DNA from: Halichondria panicea
Taxonomy: Eukaryota; Porifera; Demospongiae; Suberitida; Halichondriidae
Assembly (NCBI RefSeq): GCF_963675165.1
Contig: NC_087378.1
Coordinates: 1,015,001 to 1,079,000, forward strand
DNA length: 64,000 bases
Direction: 5' to 3'
Notes under the pieces: model-generated
Seen by the model: only the letters and a program-made list of their open reading frames with translations
The model's database searches: none
Told to the model about the DNA's origin: nothing
Made by a program: the position numbers and the translations under genes
Part shown: positions 8,451-50,548 of the stretch, piece by piece
How the letters are laid out: the number at the start of each line of letters is the position of its first letter
Position numbering within the stretch: position 1 is the stretch's first letter

Positions 8451-8704
8451 GTCCTAGTGATGCATTTCCCCTTCATTCAGAGCACCGCAATAATTAGCTT
8501 ATGGGTTACTATACAACATAGAATTATGCTGCGTTGTCAGAATGTGTCCACCTTAAAAGCTACATGTATATAATATATACATGTAAAGTGTATAGCTTTT
8601 AATGTGGATACATTCTAACATGCAGCATAATTCTATGCTGTATAGTAACCCATAAGCTAATTATTGCAGTGCTTTGAATGAACGGGAAATGTATCACTAG
8701 GACT
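8451..8704. mobile_element. Foldback MITE-like element
   Basis: A near-perfect inverted repeat. The left arm starts GTCCTAGTGA at 8451 and the right arm ends TCACTAGGAC at 8704. The arms are about 120 bp each with scattered mismatches, and the centre falls at about 8577 in a short TA-rich stretch (ACATGTATATAATATATACATGT-like, palindromic). There is no ORF. The structure is typical of a non-autonomous foldback element; the superfamily is unknown. Confidence 0.85.
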
Positions 8705-16100: not shown

Positions 16101-19100
16101 CTTTAAACAAGCTGACCGAGTTAAAAAATGTCTACAGTGGCGTAGGAAGGGGGGGGGCTCCAGGGGCTGGAGCCCCCCCCATCTTTCTTAGAGATGACTT
16201 ATCCAAGCTGCACTATGTCAATAGCCTTACCCTTTTTCCATTCAAAAAACTAGAACCCCCCCCCCCCCCCAATTGAGAAATTGCTTCCTACACCATTGGT
16301 CTATAACGTACCTCTTGAACACAACGACTACTCTAAATCGAGGCAGTATTCTAATGCTTAGGAGGGGAAGTAAATACATAATGTCCACTGACACTTGAAA
16401 GGAAGATTTATTGCAAGTTGCACATTTATAGGCATGCCATAGACTTCACACAGCTACATATGTATAAGCAAGAGCTCACAATCTTAGCGACCTTAAAGGA
16501 TGTATGCTAAGTACCGCTAATCGTTAATAACTGGTTTTCAACAAGCGAGAACAAGTGAGAATCACTGTTTGCAGGGAAAAATGGGTCCAGTTCATCTATA
16601 AAATAGATAAAAATTAAAGGTCATCTGCATACTTCCTGAGGAATGCGAGCAATAAGTGGGTGATTCGATCGCTGCCTGGTACATTAAACACTGAAATTCA
16701 TATTAAGGTCAGGTGATTATTTCGGGCACCTACCTGCATGATGTGAGTGGGTGGAAGGATGAAAACACACGCACAGTTACAGCTGTGACCTACAGCGATT
16801 GTTGCAACTACTCTAAGAGTTCTGTGGACTATTAGACTAGACTGTGTATATATGGAGCATCCATCCCACACACTCTCTCGTGTAACTAGGGGGGCACATG
16901 ATCCTTATGGATCAGGTGGGAGCTACACACACTGAAAATTAACTTCTCTCTCTCTCATTCTCTCTCTCTCACATCTCTCTCTCTCACACACACACAAGTC
17001 CATTTATTGTGGCTGCCCTAAATGGATGGGTGGTTGGAACAGAGACCTACGTATGTCAGTCTACCAGGCACTCTCATAAGAGAATACATGAATAATGAAT
17101 AGCAGGCCTACAATCAATGCCATACAGGTCATGATTAGCCTTTGGATTCATAGACAGACCTAGTGGCTATATTTGTTGTACAAAAACATAGATCGAGTAC
17201 ACAAAGCTCATCTACTCCACTGTGGAATGCAAAACATGTAATTTGTGGTTAGGTTAAGGGCCTATGAATATCATTAACCACACCCAGGGAGACACGACAA
17301 ACAATGACCAATAAACAGCAAGTCCCGGGTAGTCCCCGGGGTGCACAAACAACCTACACTGGAGCACTAGTCATAGCAAGCCCACTAGGTAGCACACAAG
17401 TCCCGGGTAGTCCCCGGGGTGCACAAACAACCTACACTGGAGCACTAGTCATAGCAAGCCCCAGCCAGCCAGGCTCAGTGTAAAGGTAACACCCCTACTA
17501 CTTTAGAAAGTAAGGTGGAAATCAAAGGTTAAATAATAGCAGCTTCAGACAGTAATTATACATTATGAGCCTATCATGCAAACAAAGGAAGTACACGTAT
17601 CCTGAGGTTTCTAATTATCCATACTCAAATTCAATTTACAATACACGATACCGGTAATAAACTTTTACTACATGTAGTCTTCTAGTGAAACCCTCTCAAA
17701 TATGTAGTTTCAATGAAATGCAACAGACATCCATCCGTACTAGGACAGTACACTGAGCCTTGTGGCAACACATTCCCTGCATATTTCCCATGTGCTAGAA
17801 ATCAACTGTGGTGTTTGGCAGCTTATGCTCAGAAGGGATCTCTTTTAACCATCCTATAGCTCCAATTTCTCAAGTAAATTACAGCCGCCTTTGATGTACT
17901 AATCTCACAGAACTTGTGCGGAGGTATGAAATTACAAAACAAGACTAACCAAGCCGACAAAGTGGTCCTCATGCCTGAGTAGCTAATCGCACACTTTCAA
18001 CACTACAAATAGCACCGTTAGTCCCCCTAGCAACAATATTCATAACATCAGTAGTTTACAATACAATCTTGTACTTCTAATAAAACACCGTATGGCAATA
18101 CCACTCGAACCAGTCATACACATCGTACATGTAGATAACTGTAATTACAGGGGCACCCCCCCCCTCTGTACTCAATTACAGGAACATCTTTCCCTCTGTA
18201 CCTGGTGCGCTAATTACAGGGGCACCCTCCCTCTGTACCTGGTGCGCTAATGACAGGGGCACACTCCCTTCCTAGATCCTCTGTACCTCTGTACCTGGTG
18301 TGCTAATTACAGGGGCACCCTCCCTCTGTACCTCTGAATGTGGTATGCTTAGTGACTGGTTTCCCCTGCTCATCGATCATCCTCTCAGCATTGCCGTGAT
18401 CTGAAGTTACGAGCATCACAAAGCCAGCCTCCTCACAAGCCACCTGGATATCACCAATAGCCTTGTCTGTACAGGAGAGAGAATGATGACAGATTGTAAT
18501 AGCCTTTCTACATGTCCTGGGTCCAGGAAATAAGAAATCTGTCAAATGCACTAATGTGACATCCTTAACCCTTACACATGGCCTTTACATGTGGCAAGCA
18601 AAGGTAAATTGATATTAAGCCGAGTGGGTGATAGATTAAGTACATTAGTATTAGCGTACACACAGCTGCATGCAAGACCATTGAGCTCAGCACTTCTTAG
18701 AGGATATACCCTCAGGGAAAACTGCTCAGGTGTATAGCGTAGTGTCATCATTGCTCAACAAGACCATGGAATGGTCAGTACATGGGAGGAAGTCTTTGGT
18801 TTCAACCAAGGGAAGAGCATCCATTCATGTGAAAGGAAAACTAGCATAAACAGTGTAATTACACTATGATACAATGTCAACACACACTGGGGAAGCTACC
18901 GCCACTGTAACAGTATAGACTTTCAGTTGTGAACCAGAAGACGTACATTACATACCTGTAGCAGAACAGGCGACCATTGCAGCCTCGTACACTCCAGTGT
19001 GACCCACCATGTCAGGGGGAGCAAAGTTACACATCACAAACGGGTACTTGTCACTCTTTATAGCCTTCACCATCTGGAATTAAAACGAGTTAATGGTCAG

Positions 19101-22100
19101 TGTATTCATCATCGAAGTAAAATGTGTATAATAATCCTTATAATATAACCTCCTACAAGCAACCACACATGTAACTAGAAGGCTGTGCAAACACATAGAG
19201 CTCAGCACTTCTTAGAGGATATGCCCTCATGGCAGACAGCTCAGGTGTAGTGTAGTGTCATCATCACTCACATGGGACACACATTATATCATGAATAGTA
19301 AGTAGTCTAGTCGTAAGAGATGATGTAGTTGCAACAGTAAGAGATGATGTAGTTGCTGTTGCTACACAAAACATAATTACTTTATAATTATAGTCATGTC
19401 ATACCAATTAAATAATCAATTAGGTGTGCAAAAGGCAGCTCTTCTCCTCATGTTCAGGTACAAATGATACAAGCTCAACCTTTAATGTTTGTAGTAAACA
19501 GTGATGAAATGGAAGTACTTTCTAAATCCCCTCCCCCTCACACCATAACCACACACACAGAGGGCATAATTCCCCATATGAGAAAAGGATGTATAGTATG
19601 AAAGAAAGTTCGTACCTGATGACAAAAAGGAAGTTATCAACAGTGCTTCATTACAGGGTTGTTTTGCCCATAGCTACCTCAAACCATATCCCTCACTAGG
19701 TTCAGCTCTAAAGCTTTGTTGGTAAACAACGGGCATTCCTAGCAATGAGAGCACCTTAGAACATGGTGACATTTGATACCAATTACCCAGCACCCCCATA
19801 ACTGCCCTAAACCCAGACAACTGCCACAACTCGCTACGGTATCCCACATACCAATACACCCACTAAATGCAGGTATTCAACATCAAATAGAGGCAAATTA
19901 CCATATTAGTCAAATTATTGCATCGAGACAGTGGGTGATGCATTTTACATACGTATACTAATCGACATTCTGTAACCGACAGTTCCATTAGTGGTGATGT
20001 AATGTGGTGAAATGTGTGTTTTTACGTCACACACTAGCTACCAAAAATGCTCTCACAAACTCGTCACTAGAGTATTTGTTAGGTACCTTTATTAAGACAT
20101 TCACCAACTGTACACATGTGCGCACTGTTGCTACGTCACCCATTGAAACTAACCATACTCCTATACTACTAGCTACCATATTGTTATGAACACAATTCAC
20201 CCCCACTATAATCTCGATGCATATTATGGATGTTGCTTAACACTACATGTACATACCGCATGGTTTATTTGACTACTACATACCGTACTACTAGAATATT
20301 TTGCACGTGAAAAACTTTTGCGAATGAGCCAAATCAGCAGAAAAGTTGACCCTTTTTCGATCTAACAATTGCTACCTGGCAAGGATCGTGTGCATTTACT
20401 AGTAGTTTTGCGATTTTATTGTTGCGAATTGATCAACCCTCGCAAAGTTCGCATATGTTTGATGCTCGCAAAATATTCTAGCAATACGGTACTGAATATC
20501 CCCCTTTACTTACTTCCCTGGCCACTCCCTCAGCGTTCATCTCTGGCTGGAGGTCGTAAGTGGGCACCTTGGGTGAGGGGACCATGAGCCTCTCCTCCTG
20601 ACTAAAGGCCTCCTCACGACCACCATTGAAGAAGAACGTCACATGAGCATACTTCTCAGTCTCTGTGCACACGGTATAAAACATGAACATGAGGCTGTGG
20701 GTATGGCCAGTGGGTAAAGATCACAACACTAGAAAACCTAAAACGGAGCTCAGAGTAAATGAAGTGGAGTGATTTCCTTCCCTAGGCTAAACTAATAAAC
20801 TAGGCCTTCAAATATTACTTGTTAGTACCTGCACAGTGAAACTGTGGTACTCCTTTCTTAGCCAGCCACTCTGCTAGTGTGTTGGTGGGGATCTCGGGAG
20901 GGAACAAAGTGACAAACGGGAATTCTTTCTTGTACTCTGTCATGGTGTAGATCTTCAAGCCACTCGGGATTACAGCTGTGTCAAACTGAGGCTTCAGTCC
21001 AAAAGCCTCCACTATTTGTCGCATACGGTCAGACCGGAAATCAATAAAGATCAACGTGTCGTTGTCTGAAATAAAGGCCATTATAACAATACGTCTTGAC
21101 TACAATATTGTGCGTACCTCTGATGAGTCCTTCCTTGTTGAGAATGATTGGCTTCATGAATTCATCCGTCTGTCTCTCACTTCCCTCCTTGGCATAGAGC
21201 TCTTCCATTACCTACACAGGCACACACACAGTGCAGTACTGACATGCTGTGGAGGCACACACACAGTGCAGTACTGACATGCTGTAGAGGCACACACACA
21301 GTGCAGTACTGACATGCTGTAGAGGCACACACACAGTGCAGTACTGACATGCTGTGGAGGCACACACACAGTGCAGTACTGACATGCTGTAGAGGCACAC
21401 ACACAGTGCAGTACTGACATGCTGTGGAGGCACACACACAGTGCAGTACTGACATGCTGTGGAGGCACACACACAGTGCAGTACTGACATGCTGTAGAGG
21501 CACACACACAGTGCAGTACTGACATGCTGTGGAGGCACACACACAGTGCAGTACTGACATGCTGTAGAGGCACACACACAGTGCAGTACTGACATGCTGT
21601 GGAGGCACACACACAGTGCAGTACTGACATGCTGTAGAGGCACACACACAGTGCAGTACTGACATGCTGTGGAGGCACACACACAGTGCAGTACTGACAT
21701 GCTGTAGAGGCACACACACAGTGCAGTACTGACATGCTGTGGAGGCACACACACAGTGCAGTACTGACATGCTGTAGAGGCACACACACAGTGCAGTACT
21801 GACATGCTGTGGAGGCACACACACAGTGCAGTACTGACATGCTGTAGAGGCACACACACAGTGCAGTACTGACATGCTGTAGAGGCACACACACAGTGCA
21901 GTACTGACACGCTGTGGAGTTACCTAGACACAAGCATACACATGGTGATTTACTGACAAGCTTTTTTAGGAATTACCTATACAGGCACACACACAGTGCA
22001 TTACTGACTTGCTACAGAGTAGACTCTATATGTTATAGTCAAAAAGCTTGACATTCAGCTATATTTCAGAGAGCCATTGTGTGTACTCACTGTAATGAGC

Positions 22101-23603
22101 TGGTCAGTAGACACATCCTTCCCGATACCCTGTGTCATTCCCTCAAATGCAAGCTTGGTCCTCTCGTACCTCTTGTCCCTGTCCATGGCGTAGTATCGTC
22201 CAGCCAGAGTGGCCAGGGAGCCGTACTGTAGGGTGGACATGTAGTCCAGCACCTGTCTCACATATGTCACTGCGGAAACAATCAGTTAGTCCTAATCAAA
22301 TTCAGGAAATGGATGGAATTTAAAGACGGTTTTGATCTACTTTAATCGTGTCCATAGAGCTCCTAAACAGCCATCGAATTCCTTTGAAACAGACAATCCA
22401 AAATAAGGTTATGGGCTCCCAAAATGATGTATTTATAATGTATAATCTATGAGTCAAAACAGCAAGGCATTAAATACAAGTTAAAGACTATAGGCATTAG
22501 GCATAATATATAGCCCACCTCCACTGGTTGGACCTGTGTCCCTCCCGTCAGCAAAGAAATGCACAAACGACTGTGGCACTCCAGCTGTCTTGGCAGCTTT
22601 GAGCAGAGCCTCCAGGTGAGTGATGTGACTGTGGACCCCTCCATCGCTAACCAGGCCTAGGAAGTGAAGCCGACCACCATTGCTCTTTGCAGACGTGAAT
22701 GCTTCCACCAGATGAGGACGATCTTGTAGAGTGTTCTCTGTGATAGCTCGATTGATGGCCACTATATCCTGAGTAAGAGTAAAGAAGTTAACGTCGACCT
22801 AAATGAAGCATCTTTGAACAACCAAAACTTTTGTTCTGTTGGTCCAATCACTAAAGCTTACAATGAGCTCGTTCTTTTTGGCCTGTTTCCGAAAATGAGA
22901 AATTATCCTGTTTTGACATTTGAGGCGTACCGCCTGAAAAAGCTTCTTCTAAGCTTTCAAAATTGGACCATTAGATACAGAGCCGACTCTAGGACTCTAA
23001 AAATGCTGGGGATCTAATACATGGCAGCACGTGCACACTGTAGCAATCACAGAACGTTATTGACTGCAATGGCCGATGAGCTCAGTACTTCTTAGAGGAT
23101 AAACCCTCATGGAAAACTGCTCAGGTGTTAGTGTAGTGTCATCATCGCTCACATTGCTTTGTACACAAAAACAAAAATCAGGCAGAACTTTTCTACTGGC
23201 ATTTTTCATTCATGAATTTGGGGTTTATGATAAAAAATAAAAAGTGTGCATGCAGAGCTTCTGAATAACACTACTCCTCCCCCCCGTACGTACGTACCTG
23301 ATACACAACCCTCCCAGTCCCTATGGTGAAGTGGCCGACCTCACTGTTCCCCATGAGCCCCTCAGGCAAACCCACGGCCAGACCACTAGCATCGACTGTC
23401 AGGTACTGCTCCTTCACGTTAGTGAGTGTATCCATGACTGGGGTGGCCGCATTCTTGATAGCATTACCTGGGCACAAAGAAAAATGAGTCGTGCTTAAAT
23501 TTATATTGGAATTCATCATTTTAATATTTGCAATTTTTAACACACCTTTGGTTTCTTCCGAGATTCCCCAGCCGTCAATCACAATCAGGCACACTTTAGA
23601 CAT
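12941..23603 (-). CDS. 2,3-bisphosphoglycerate-independent phosphoglycerate mutase
   Basis: Converts 3-phosphoglycerate to 2-phosphoglycerate in glycolysis and gluconeogenesis through a phosphoserine, using two Mn ions. Exons in transcript order: 23546-23603, 23298-23467, 22519-22768, 22091-22269, 21118-21211, 20829-21065, 20514-20662, 18956-19073, 18332-18466 and 12941-13092. Phases agree and give 513 aa, the usual iPGM size. Key motifs are the metal-binding N-terminal DGWG, GNSEVGH with the phosphorylated Ser, NFRSDR-like [30 protein letters not shown], the metal ligands in TSDHGNAE, and the C-terminal [11 protein letters not shown]. The last intron is 5.2 kb and repeat-rich. Introns carry three sense-strand snoRNA candidates. 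Vertebrates use the unrelated cofactor-dependent enzyme; iPGM occurs in sponges, nematodes, plants and bacteria. The gene starts about 135 bp or less from the divergent PAAT-like gene. Confidence 0.96.
13094..13190. repeat. (TG)n microsatellite
   Basis: A long GT run with a few GCGT variants directly abuts the acceptor of the last iPGM exon. In the transcript it is a CA-rich tract immediately before the AG. Confidence 0.92.
13682..13705. repeat. 24-bp perfect palindrome
   Basis: CTCTAGCGTACG and its reverse complement are joined without a spacer in the last iPGM intron. It could form a cruciform or serve as a dimeric binding site; its function is unknown. Confidence 0.85.
13856..14870 (-). 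pseudogene. Possible nested gene or gene remnant in the iPGM intron
   Basis: Three minus-strand blocks can be joined with splice-like borders. The 5' block covers roughly 14490-14870, the second is 14286-14368 (acceptor TCCAG then ATGAAGG), and the last is 13856-14240, ending in a stop at 13856. The last two blocks keep phase across the junction, and the last is a 130-codon open stretch. The first block is interrupted by an in-frame TGA at about 14606, after which it stays open to a good donor (CAG then GTACGA). I do not recognise the product. Either a small intron or frame error explains the stop, or this is a decayed gene. It lies in the same orientation as iPGM, inside its 5.2-kb intron. 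Coding status is uncertain. Confidence 0.3.
15285..15467. repeat. 37-bp minisatellite, about five copies
   Basis: Units of the type CTACCATTAGACAGCCAATA followed by ATGAACAGGGTGCATCT. Alternating variants read CCATTAGACAG and CCGTTAGACAT; the last copy is diverged. Confidence 0.88.
16138..16295. mobile_element. Short TIR element (MITE-like), GC-rich core
   Basis: The left end TGGCGTAGGAAG (16138-16149) matches the reverse complement of the right end CTTCCTACACCA (16284-16295) with one mismatch. The core contains G- and C-runs and an internal hairpin (GGGGCTCC ... GGAGCCCC). There is no ORF. Confidence 0.65.
17321..17462. repeat. Direct tandem duplication, 78-bp period
   Basis: The segment starting AGTCCCGGGTAGTCCCCGGG occurs at 17321 and again at 17399. 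About 64 bp are identical and are followed by different sequence. Confidence 0.88.
18150..18331. repeat. Diverged tandem repeat next to the iPGM exon 9 donor
   Basis: About four or five copies of a unit containing AATTACAGGGGCACCCTCCC followed by TCTGTACCTGGTGCGCT. The last copy runs into the real exon-intron junction at 18331/18332. On the coding strand each unit carries a GGTACAGAGGG donor-like string. Confidence 0.75.
18683..18759 (-). ncRNA. Candidate box C/D snoRNA, copy 1 (iPGM intron)
   Basis: Read on the minus strand (the sense of iPGM), it has box C ATGATGA near the 5' end, CTGA (D') inside CACCTGAGC, a C'-like region around CCTGAGG, and box D CTGA in GTGCTGAGCTC. The terminal GAGC and GCTC can pair as the usual short stem. 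The guide upstream of box D, TCCTCTAAGAAGT, is complementary to the conserved 18S rRNA string ACUUCUUAGAGG. It lies inside an intron, as metazoan snoRNAs usually do. The +5 rule predicts 2'-O-methylation of the second U of ACUU. Confidence 0.75.
19198..19272 (-). ncRNA. Candidate box C/D snoRNA, copy 2 (iPGM intron)
   Basis: A paralogue of the candidate at 18683, in the next upstream iPGM intron and in the same sense. Boxes are C ATGATGA, D' CTGA in CACCTGAGC, C' CATGAGG and D CTGA in GTGCTGAGCTC. The guide ATCCTCTAAGAAGTG before box D is unchanged, while the internal segment differs (CTGTCTGCC in place of CAGTTTTCC). Confidence 0.75.
19365..20280. other. Intron sequence without recognised features
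   Basis: Part of iPGM intron 7 between snoRNA copy 2 and the MITE at 20281. AT-rich, with only short spurious ORFs. A short GAGATGATGTAGTTG duplication lies just upstream, near 19320-19360. Confidence 0.45.
20281..20491. mobile_element. TIR element (MITE), TACCGTA termini
   Basis: The left end TACCGTACTACTAGAATATT and the right end (reverse complement TACCGTATTGCTAGAATATT) form terminal inverted repeats of about 26 bp with few mismatches. The element is 211 bp with no ORF, and sits 22 bp from the donor of iPGM exon 7. It shares the TACCGT terminus with the element at 48541. Confidence 0.85.
21212..21920. repeat. 35-bp minisatellite, about 20 copies
   Basis: The unit contains GTGCAGTACTGACATGCTGT followed by a G or A variant and AGGCACACACACA. 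In order, the variant base reads about G A A G A G G A G A G A G A G A G A A G, so most of the array is a 70-bp dimer repeat. It starts exactly at the acceptor of iPGM exon 5 (exon edge 21211). A lone diverged copy sits at about 21970-22015. Because 35 is not a multiple of 3 and the unit lacks stops, three minus-strand frames stay open; these are not genes. Confidence 0.95.
23078..23153 (-). ncRNA. Candidate box C/D snoRNA, copy 3 (iPGM intron)
   Basis: Third paralogue, in iPGM intron 2 and in the sense orientation. Box C is GATGATGA, D' CTGA in CACCTGAGC, C' CATGAGG and box D CTGA in GTACTGAGCTC. The guide ATCCTCTAAGAAGTA keeps the same 18S complementarity. The terminal GAGC/GCTC stem is kept. 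Confidence 0.75.

Positions 23604-29070: not shown

Positions 29071-50548
<21,478 letters not shown>

What the first reader, a model, noticed from the sequence alone, without database searches (positions are those of the whole stretch)
18683..23153. Three paralogous box C/D snoRNAs in three introns of the iPGM gene, same 18S guide
Copies at 18683-18759, 19198-19272 and 23078-23153 lie in three different introns, all in the sense of the host gene. All keep box C (ATGATGA), D', a C'-like box, box D (CTGA) and a GAGC/GCTC terminal stem. The most conserved stretch is the guide upstream of box D, complementary over 12 bases to the conserved 18S rRNA string ACUUCUUAGAGG. By the +5 rule the target is the second U of ACUU. 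I recall vertebrate U61 (SNORD61) guiding a U methylation in this part of 18S, but could not check that. A glycolytic gene as multi-copy snoRNA host is unusual.
Basis: partly seen in the sequence, partly recalled or inferred. Interest (0 to 1): 0.75.

Follow-up and report, generated by a model that had tools for sequence, protein, structure and literature searches.

The report
Seven-copy SNORD61-like guide RNA family
Three introns of a sugar-metabolism gene carry copies of an ancient small RNA predicted to place one methyl group on ribosomal RNA, and four more copies sit in introns of a second gene: a well-known kind of RNA, with an unusual choice of host genes and copy number.

Summary
Three ~75-nt box C/D snoRNA genes lie at 18682-18759, 19197-19272 and 23077-23153, all on the minus strand, in introns 8, 7 and 2 of a minus-strand iPGM gene, in the host's sense. 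They match Rfam snoU61 (E 3e-5 to 5e-5 in a 5-kb scan; 4e-4 to 6e-4 in the whole window), below its gathering score. The 12-nt guide beside box D is exactly complementary to one site in the genome's own 18S rRNA, equivalent to human Um1442, the SNORD61 target, by count on a recalled human sequence.

The guide-plus-box-D word occurs 7 times in 131 Mb, control 0; all seven are intronic and host-sense. Guide, D' and D never vary; the C-to-D' spacer varies at 10 of 17 columns. One UBR4 copy has a damaged box C.

The intron-7 copy shares ~20 nt of 3' flank, less clearly 5' flank, with UBR4 copies, so more than the mature RNA moved. SNORD61 and snoRNA duplication are known: new member of a known kind; expression untested.

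The parts
18682..18759 (-). SNORD61-like C/D snoRNA, copy in iPGM intron 8 (box C 18745-18751, D' 18726-18729, C' 18709-18715, guide 18692-18703, box D 18687-18690)
   Evidence: Rfam snoU61 35.3 bits E 2.9e-5; CM R1 91.2 bits (a training sequence); boxes and guide
19197..19272 (-). SNORD61-like C/D snoRNA, copy in iPGM intron 7 (box C 19261-19267, D' 19241-19244, guide 19207-19218, box D 19202-19205); shares flank with UBR4 copies
   Evidence: Rfam snoU61 35.2 bits E 3.1e-5; boxes and guide; flank test
23077..23153 (-). SNORD61-like C/D snoRNA, copy in iPGM intron 2 (box C 23139-23145, D' 23121-23124, guide 23087-23098, box D 23082-23085)
   Evidence: Rfam snoU61 34.5 bits E 5e-5; boxes and guide
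18332..23603 (-). Host gene: independent phosphoglycerate mutase (iPGM), exons 1-9: 23546-23603, 23298-23467, 22519-22768, 22091-22269, 21118-21211, 20829-21065, 20514-20662, 18956-19073, 18332-18466; the 3' end of exon 9 and anything beyond it not resolved
   Evidence: Splice sites and open 463-aa reading frame; Pfam iPGM_N 7.2e-71, Metalloenzyme 1.6e-68

Best explanation
These are functional intronic box C/D snoRNAs of the ancient SNORD61/snoU61 group. Inferred mechanism (general knowledge of the class): each is made from the spliced and debranched iPGM (or UBR4) intron by exonuclease trimming back to the C/D k-turn and terminal stem. It assembles with fibrillarin, Nop56, Nop58 and 15.5K, and its 12-nt guide pairs with 18S ACUUCUUAGAGG. 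Fibrillarin then 2'-O-methylates the U opposite the fifth guide nucleotide upstream of box D (position 1386 of the 18S copy examined, Um1442 in human numbering). The copies arose by within-gene duplication plus at least one transfer between UBR4 and iPGM, and they raise the dose of a single guide. Shown: sequence, boxes, guide, target in own 18S, intronic sense location, copy number in the assembly. Inferred: expression, RNP assembly, methylation, dose effect, route and direction of transfer.
For: Rfam snoU61 E 2.9e-5, 3.1e-5 and 5e-5 for 3 of 3 window copies and 2.4e-4 to 1.8e-3 for 4 of 4 UBR4 copies. Rfam SNORD61 RF00270 reports these seven places and no other among the 61 candidates scored. 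Exact guide+D word 7 times, control 0. The best 18S duplex of the D guide is 12 Watson-Crick pairs plus 1 G-U at 18S 1383 for 7 of 7 copies, score 12.2 against means of 7.8 to 8.2 for shuffled guides. 9 of 10 18S-like places looked at (of 26 matches) carry ACTTCTTAGAGG. 12 of 12 guide columns, 4 of 4 D' and 4 of 4 D invariant, against 10 of 17 variable columns between box C and D'. All seven sit between GT..AG host exons in host sense; UBR4 identity by Pfam and PDB UBR4 at 6e-158. PMC8817022 (one passage) lists Um1442/U61 on one row with AtU61 and Dictyostelium Um1456/CD1; chicken U61 has a 12-nt box-D antisense and an 18S U target (PMC2653536, passages).
Against: No RNA data. Scores are below Rfam's gathering cut-offs (35.3 against 55 for RF01170; best 39.9 against 43 for RF00270). 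Rfam E-values of this order are not decisive alone: in the same kind of scan, inverted repeats near UBR4 scored as plant microRNAs at 8.1e-5 and 1.9e-4, one in the window as mir-3912 at 0.0021, and RF00270 at E up to 10 rang in 8 of 14 control prokaryote genomes, 0 over cut-off (best own E 0.008). The C' box is degenerate. The terminal stem is absent from the minimum-energy fold of 3 of 3 window copies (present in the one UBR4 copy folded), and energies are no better than shuffles in 4 of 4. Distances to the 3' splice site in iPGM are 124, 216 and 309 nt, longer than I recall as typical. One UBR4 copy has a broken box C (AAGATGA). Shuffled guides reached maxima of 10.6 to 12.6 over seven sets of 100; one set's maximum exceeds the observed 12.2.
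Confidence: 0.83

Rival explanations
1. Real SNORD61-like snoRNAs, but only one or two of the seven copies (for example in UBR4) are expressed and functional; the iPGM copies are decaying paralogues.
For: One UBR4 copy already has a damaged box C; iPGM copies lie 124 to 309 nt from their 3' splice sites.
Against: All three iPGM copies keep C, D', D and a perfect guide although they are 83-90% identical to each other, which neutral decay would not be expected to keep.
Confidence: 0.14
2. The unit is a dispersed SINE-like or retroposed repeat without guide function.
For: Copies in two unrelated hosts; snoRNA retroposition is discussed for other animals in PMC3412847 (section 7, part 1 of 2).
Against: Seven hits in 131 Mb by three searches, all intronic and sense (the searches are not exhaustive for diverged copies); no poly(A) run in the 40-nt 3' flanks printed (by eye).
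Confidence: 0.02
3. The guide word is a chance 12-mer and the introns hold other conserved elements, such as splicing enhancers.
For: The word does occur elsewhere: 3 bacterial stretches with a 19-base form and 10 viral-collection stretches with the 17-base form.
Against: Those 13 stretches score at most 18.4 bits with the seven-copy model, matching only its guide and box D end, against 91-106 for the seven (the seven trained the model). Rfam snoU61 hits span the whole unit, independently of my model.
Confidence: 0.01

Closest known systems
SNORD61 / U61 (Rfam RF00270, RF01170; clan CL00067)
   Same: Box C/D architecture, 12-nt guide beside box D, same 18S U (human Um1442), intronic in vertebrates
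   Different: Vertebrate host is RBMX (chicken: PMC2653536 table passage; human: PMC6381762 passage), one isoform in chicken; here iPGM and UBR4 with seven copies in the assembly; sequence outside guide and boxes diverged, below gathering score
Cis-duplicated snoRNAs in sponge ribosomal protein genes (Suberites; PMC3412847, section 7 part 1 of 2 read)
   Same: Paralogous snoRNAs in neighbouring introns of one host gene
   Different: Hosts there are ribosomal protein genes; here a metabolic enzyme and a ubiquitin ligase, with both cis and trans copies
Plant and Dictyostelium U61-type guides (AtU61; Dictyostelium CD1; PMC8817022, one passage)
   Same: Listed by that paper on the same table row as Um1442/U61 (column headings not seen; species read from the names)
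   Different: AtU61 belongs to a plant snoRNA cluster (PMC5122169, one passage); here one copy per intron

Membership tests
Box C/D snoRNA | Box C RUGAUGA near the 5' end and box D CUGA near the 3' end | tested here: met
   3 of 3 window copies; 6 of 7 genome-wide for box C, 7 of 7 for D
Box C/D snoRNA | Terminal stem bringing C and D together | tested here: met
   4-6 complementary bases, one G-U in the intron-7 copy (by inspection); not in the MFE fold of 3 of 3 window copies, present in the UBR4 copy folded
Box C/D snoRNA | Guide of 10 nt or more upstream of D or D' complementary to rRNA | tested here: met
   12 Watson-Crick pairs to own 18S at 1383-1394 in 7 of 7; D' guide: best score 8 or less in the 18S; 28S not tested
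Box C/D snoRNA | Stable nucleolar RNA bound by the C/D RNP proteins | not testable with these tools
   No RNA data available
SNORD61 / snoU61 | Guide for the U equivalent to human 18S U1442 | tested here: met
   +5 position is the second U of ACUU, 1386 in the 18S copy examined; 1442 in human by count on a recalled human 3' segment; SNORD61 with 18S U1442 in PMC12288042 (a horse study) and U61 with Um1442 in PMC8817022 (passages)
SNORD61 / snoU61 | Covariance-model score at or above Rfam gathering | tested here: not met
   35.3, 35.2, 34.5 against 55 (RF01170); 39.9 at best against 43 (RF00270). Best described as a divergent homologue or functional equivalent, not a formal Rfam member
SNORD61 / snoU61 | Methylation of the target U | not testable with these tools
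   Needs RiboMeth-seq

The most novel reading that the evidence does not exclude
A single, ancient 18S methylation guide has become a mobile, dose-amplified battery in this lineage. It moves between introns of unrelated housekeeping genes as a unit up to about 40 nt longer than the mature RNA, and guide output is tied to expression of a glycolytic enzyme and the ubiquitin ligase UBR4, so methylation at 18S U1442 could track metabolic state.
Probability: 0.12. Interest if true: 0.5.

Novelty: new member of a known kind. Interest (0 to 1): 0.3.

Why it matters
It documents host switching and supplies a compact natural series (seven copies, one decaying) for studying how redundant guides are kept or lost. 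It changes no general picture of snoRNA biology.

Tried and rejected
Rfam gathering scan of the whole window: 0 hits, so the family shows only under the E-value threshold. Lower-ranked overlapping C/D hits (snoR11, SNORD11B, SCARNA18, snoU2-30, SNORD103, sR7; E 0.094 to 9.3) were set aside as generic C/D resemblance. A weak further UBR4-region candidate (L016:1457-1533, snoU61 24.9 bits, E 0.27) lacks the guide word (sequence) and was dropped. D' guide as a second functional guide: no 18S match scoring above 8, and the spacer varies between copies; 28S not tested. Single-strand folding: uninformative. Looking for the guide outside this genome in genome contigs and viral contigs: 13 stretches, all chance-like under the model. 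Mature-RNA-only retroposition between UBR4 and iPGM intron 7: disfavoured by shared flanks. Papers on these hosts: 8 papers hold snoRNA, host gene and UBR4, seen as search listing only and not opened; 1 holds intronic snoRNA and phosphoglycerate mutase (PMC2780460, passages) and reports two H/ACA snoRNAs in 3' UTRs, one of a gene similar to phosphoglycerate mutase; a search on glycolytic hosts and cis-duplication listed 12 of 59, of which only PMC2653536 and PMC3412847 were opened. Absence from print is therefore not established.

Full report
What is there. Read on the minus strand each is a box C/D snoRNA: stem (GAGC, or GAGT in the intron-7 copy), box C ATGATGA, D' CTGA, degenerate C' (NTGAGGG), guide CCTCTAAGAAGT, one spacer base, box D CTGA, stem GCTC. 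The surrounding minus-strand gene is iPGM. I built nine exons with GT..AG at all eight introns and an open 463-residue reading; Pfam gives iPGM_N 7.2e-71 and Metalloenzyme 1.6e-68. The 3' end of exon 9 and anything beyond it were not resolved. The snoRNAs lie in introns 2, 7 and 8, in host sense, 144, 1241 and 196 nt from the 5' splice site and 309, 124 and 216 nt from the 3' splice site.

Family. No Rfam family reached its gathering score in the window. At an E-value threshold the three loci match snoU61 (RF01170) over the whole 84-position model at 2.9e-5, 3.1e-5 and 5e-5 in a 5-kb scan, and at 3.7e-4, 3.9e-4 and 6.4e-4 in a whole-window scan. Such E-values are not decisive alone: inverted repeats in the UBR4 regions scored as plant microRNA precursors at 8.1e-5 to 1.9e-4, and one in the window as mir-3912 at 0.0021. 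Genome-wide, SNORD61 (RF00270) reports exactly seven places, 29.3 to 39.9 bits against a cut-off of 43, best E 0.008. The tool scored 61 of 67,225 first-look candidates, so weaker relatives may be missed, and at E up to 10 the family also rang in 8 of 14 control prokaryote genomes, none over the cut-off. What makes the case is that these searches, the exact guide word and the host sense agree on the same seven places.

Seven copies, not three. The exact word CCTCTAAGAAGTNCTGA occurs seven times in the 131-Mb assembly and 0 times in the reversed control; a DNA search with copy 1 returns the same seven. The other four are on contig C10 in two regions about 61 kb apart that align in blocks at about 90-98% identity, with two copies per region; Rfam snoU61 finds 4 of 4 at E 2.4e-4 to 1.8e-3. 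The host there is UBR4: Pfam E3_UbLigase_R4 for 4 of the 8 peptides scanned (the others being iPGM, a zinc-ribbon piece with sub-threshold UBR4-like similarity, and two peptides without a hit), and PDB UBR4 entries at 6e-158 for the joined peptides. All four lie between GT donors and AG acceptors of UBR4 exons, in host sense (junctions read by eye). Whether the two UBR4 regions are a real tandem duplication or uncollapsed haplotypes cannot be told here; the true gene number is therefore five to seven.

Target. 18S-like sequence was found on C2 and elsewhere, 26 matches. One copy (L056, Rfam SSU_rRNA_eukarya 1721 bits) holds ACTTCTTAGAGG once, at 1383-1394 of its 1794 bases; its last bases after GTCGTAAC are not canonical, whereas those of L049 are. 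For 7 of 7 snoRNA copies the best duplex of the D guide with this 18S is there, 12 Watson-Crick pairs plus one G-U, score 12.2; shuffled guides average 7.8 to 8.2, with maxima of 10.6 to 12.6 in seven sets of 100. The U opposite the fifth nucleotide upstream of box D is 18S 1386. SNORD61 with U1442 is given in PMC12288042 (passages, a horse study), and Um1442 with U61, on one row with plant and Dictyostelium counterparts and a dash where the yeast entry stands, in PMC8817022 (one passage; column headings not seen). Of the 26 matches I looked at 10 places; 9 of 10 carry the site, and L054 lacks it (L056 and L057 cover two of the ten again). The D' guide has no 18S match scoring above 8; 28S was not tested.

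Constraint. Among the seven copies the 12 guide columns, D' and D never vary; the spacer between C and D' varies at 10 of 17 columns. One UBR4 copy has box C AAGATGA instead of ATGATGA and may be dying. The seven-copy model scores its own seven members 91-106 bits and at most 18.4 bits on 13 unrelated stretches that contain the guide word.

How the copies spread. Identity is 83-90% within iPGM, 93-97% within UBR4 and 79-87% between hosts. In 40-nt flanks, the 3' flank of the intron-7 copy aligns with those of three of the four UBR4 copies (about 20 nt, with one 4-nt gap in the two alignments printed) better than any of 550 background comparisons; the fourth is matched or beaten by 21 of 550. 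The 5' flank stands out for two of the four (1 and 2 of 550) but not clearly for the other two (16 and 38 of 550), and it is GT-rich. The background was drawn from iPGM introns only, and 42 flank pairs were tested. Introns 2 and 8 share no clear flank with UBR4 (lowest: 42 of 550). The simplest reading is a transfer between UBR4 and iPGM intron 7 of a unit longer than the mature RNA, then within-gene spread to introns 2 and 8. The direction is not known.

Known or new. Passages of PMC3511168 trace 3 of 3 families of the SNORD61 clan to the last eukaryotic common ancestor and suggest that the clan is one orthologous group. PMC3412847 (section 7, part 1 of 2 read) shows sponge snoRNAs duplicated in neighbouring introns; PMC2653536 (passages) describes cis- and trans-duplication and lists U61 in RBMX intron 2 of chicken. 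So both the RNA and its mode of multiplication are known kinds. I met no report of iPGM or UBR4 as snoRNA hosts, but the listings were mostly not opened and the library holds only open-licence papers.

Noticed in passing
window 21218-21919 (iPGM intron 4): About 20 copies of a 35-bp tandem repeat at 97% match inside an iPGM intron.
   Followed up: no
window 8525-8629 and 44451-44533: Inverted repeat resembling a hairpin precursor (Rfam mir-3912, 36.1 bits, far below cut-off 95; sequence read), and a weak mir-3149 hit at the second place, not read; perhaps MITE-like inverted repeats.
   Followed up: partly
L015:3670-3864 (UBR4 region, contig C10): Nested inverted repeats scoring as plant microRNA precursors (MIR529 8.1e-5, MIR169_6 1.9e-4; both below cut-off); probably a mobile inverted-repeat element, useful as a warning about Rfam E-values of this size.
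   Followed up: no
L016:1947-2022 and L018:1818-1893 (UBR4 regions, contig C10): Weak C/D-like hits (snoZ161_228, plasmodium_snoR20; E 0.064 to 0.23) in both UBR4 regions; possibly another snoRNA (the L016 one read).
   Followed up: partly
L046, L047, L048, L056 (contig C2): 18S-like copies are scattered over C2; L047, L048 and L056 lose the canonical 18S 3' end after GTCGTAAC and the L032/L046 copy is rearranged with other sequence, while L049 keeps the canonical end.
   Followed up: partly
C10:5513000-5545000 and 5574000-5606000: Two near-identical segments of about 32 kb containing UBR4 exons; true duplication or uncollapsed haplotypes.
   Followed up: partly
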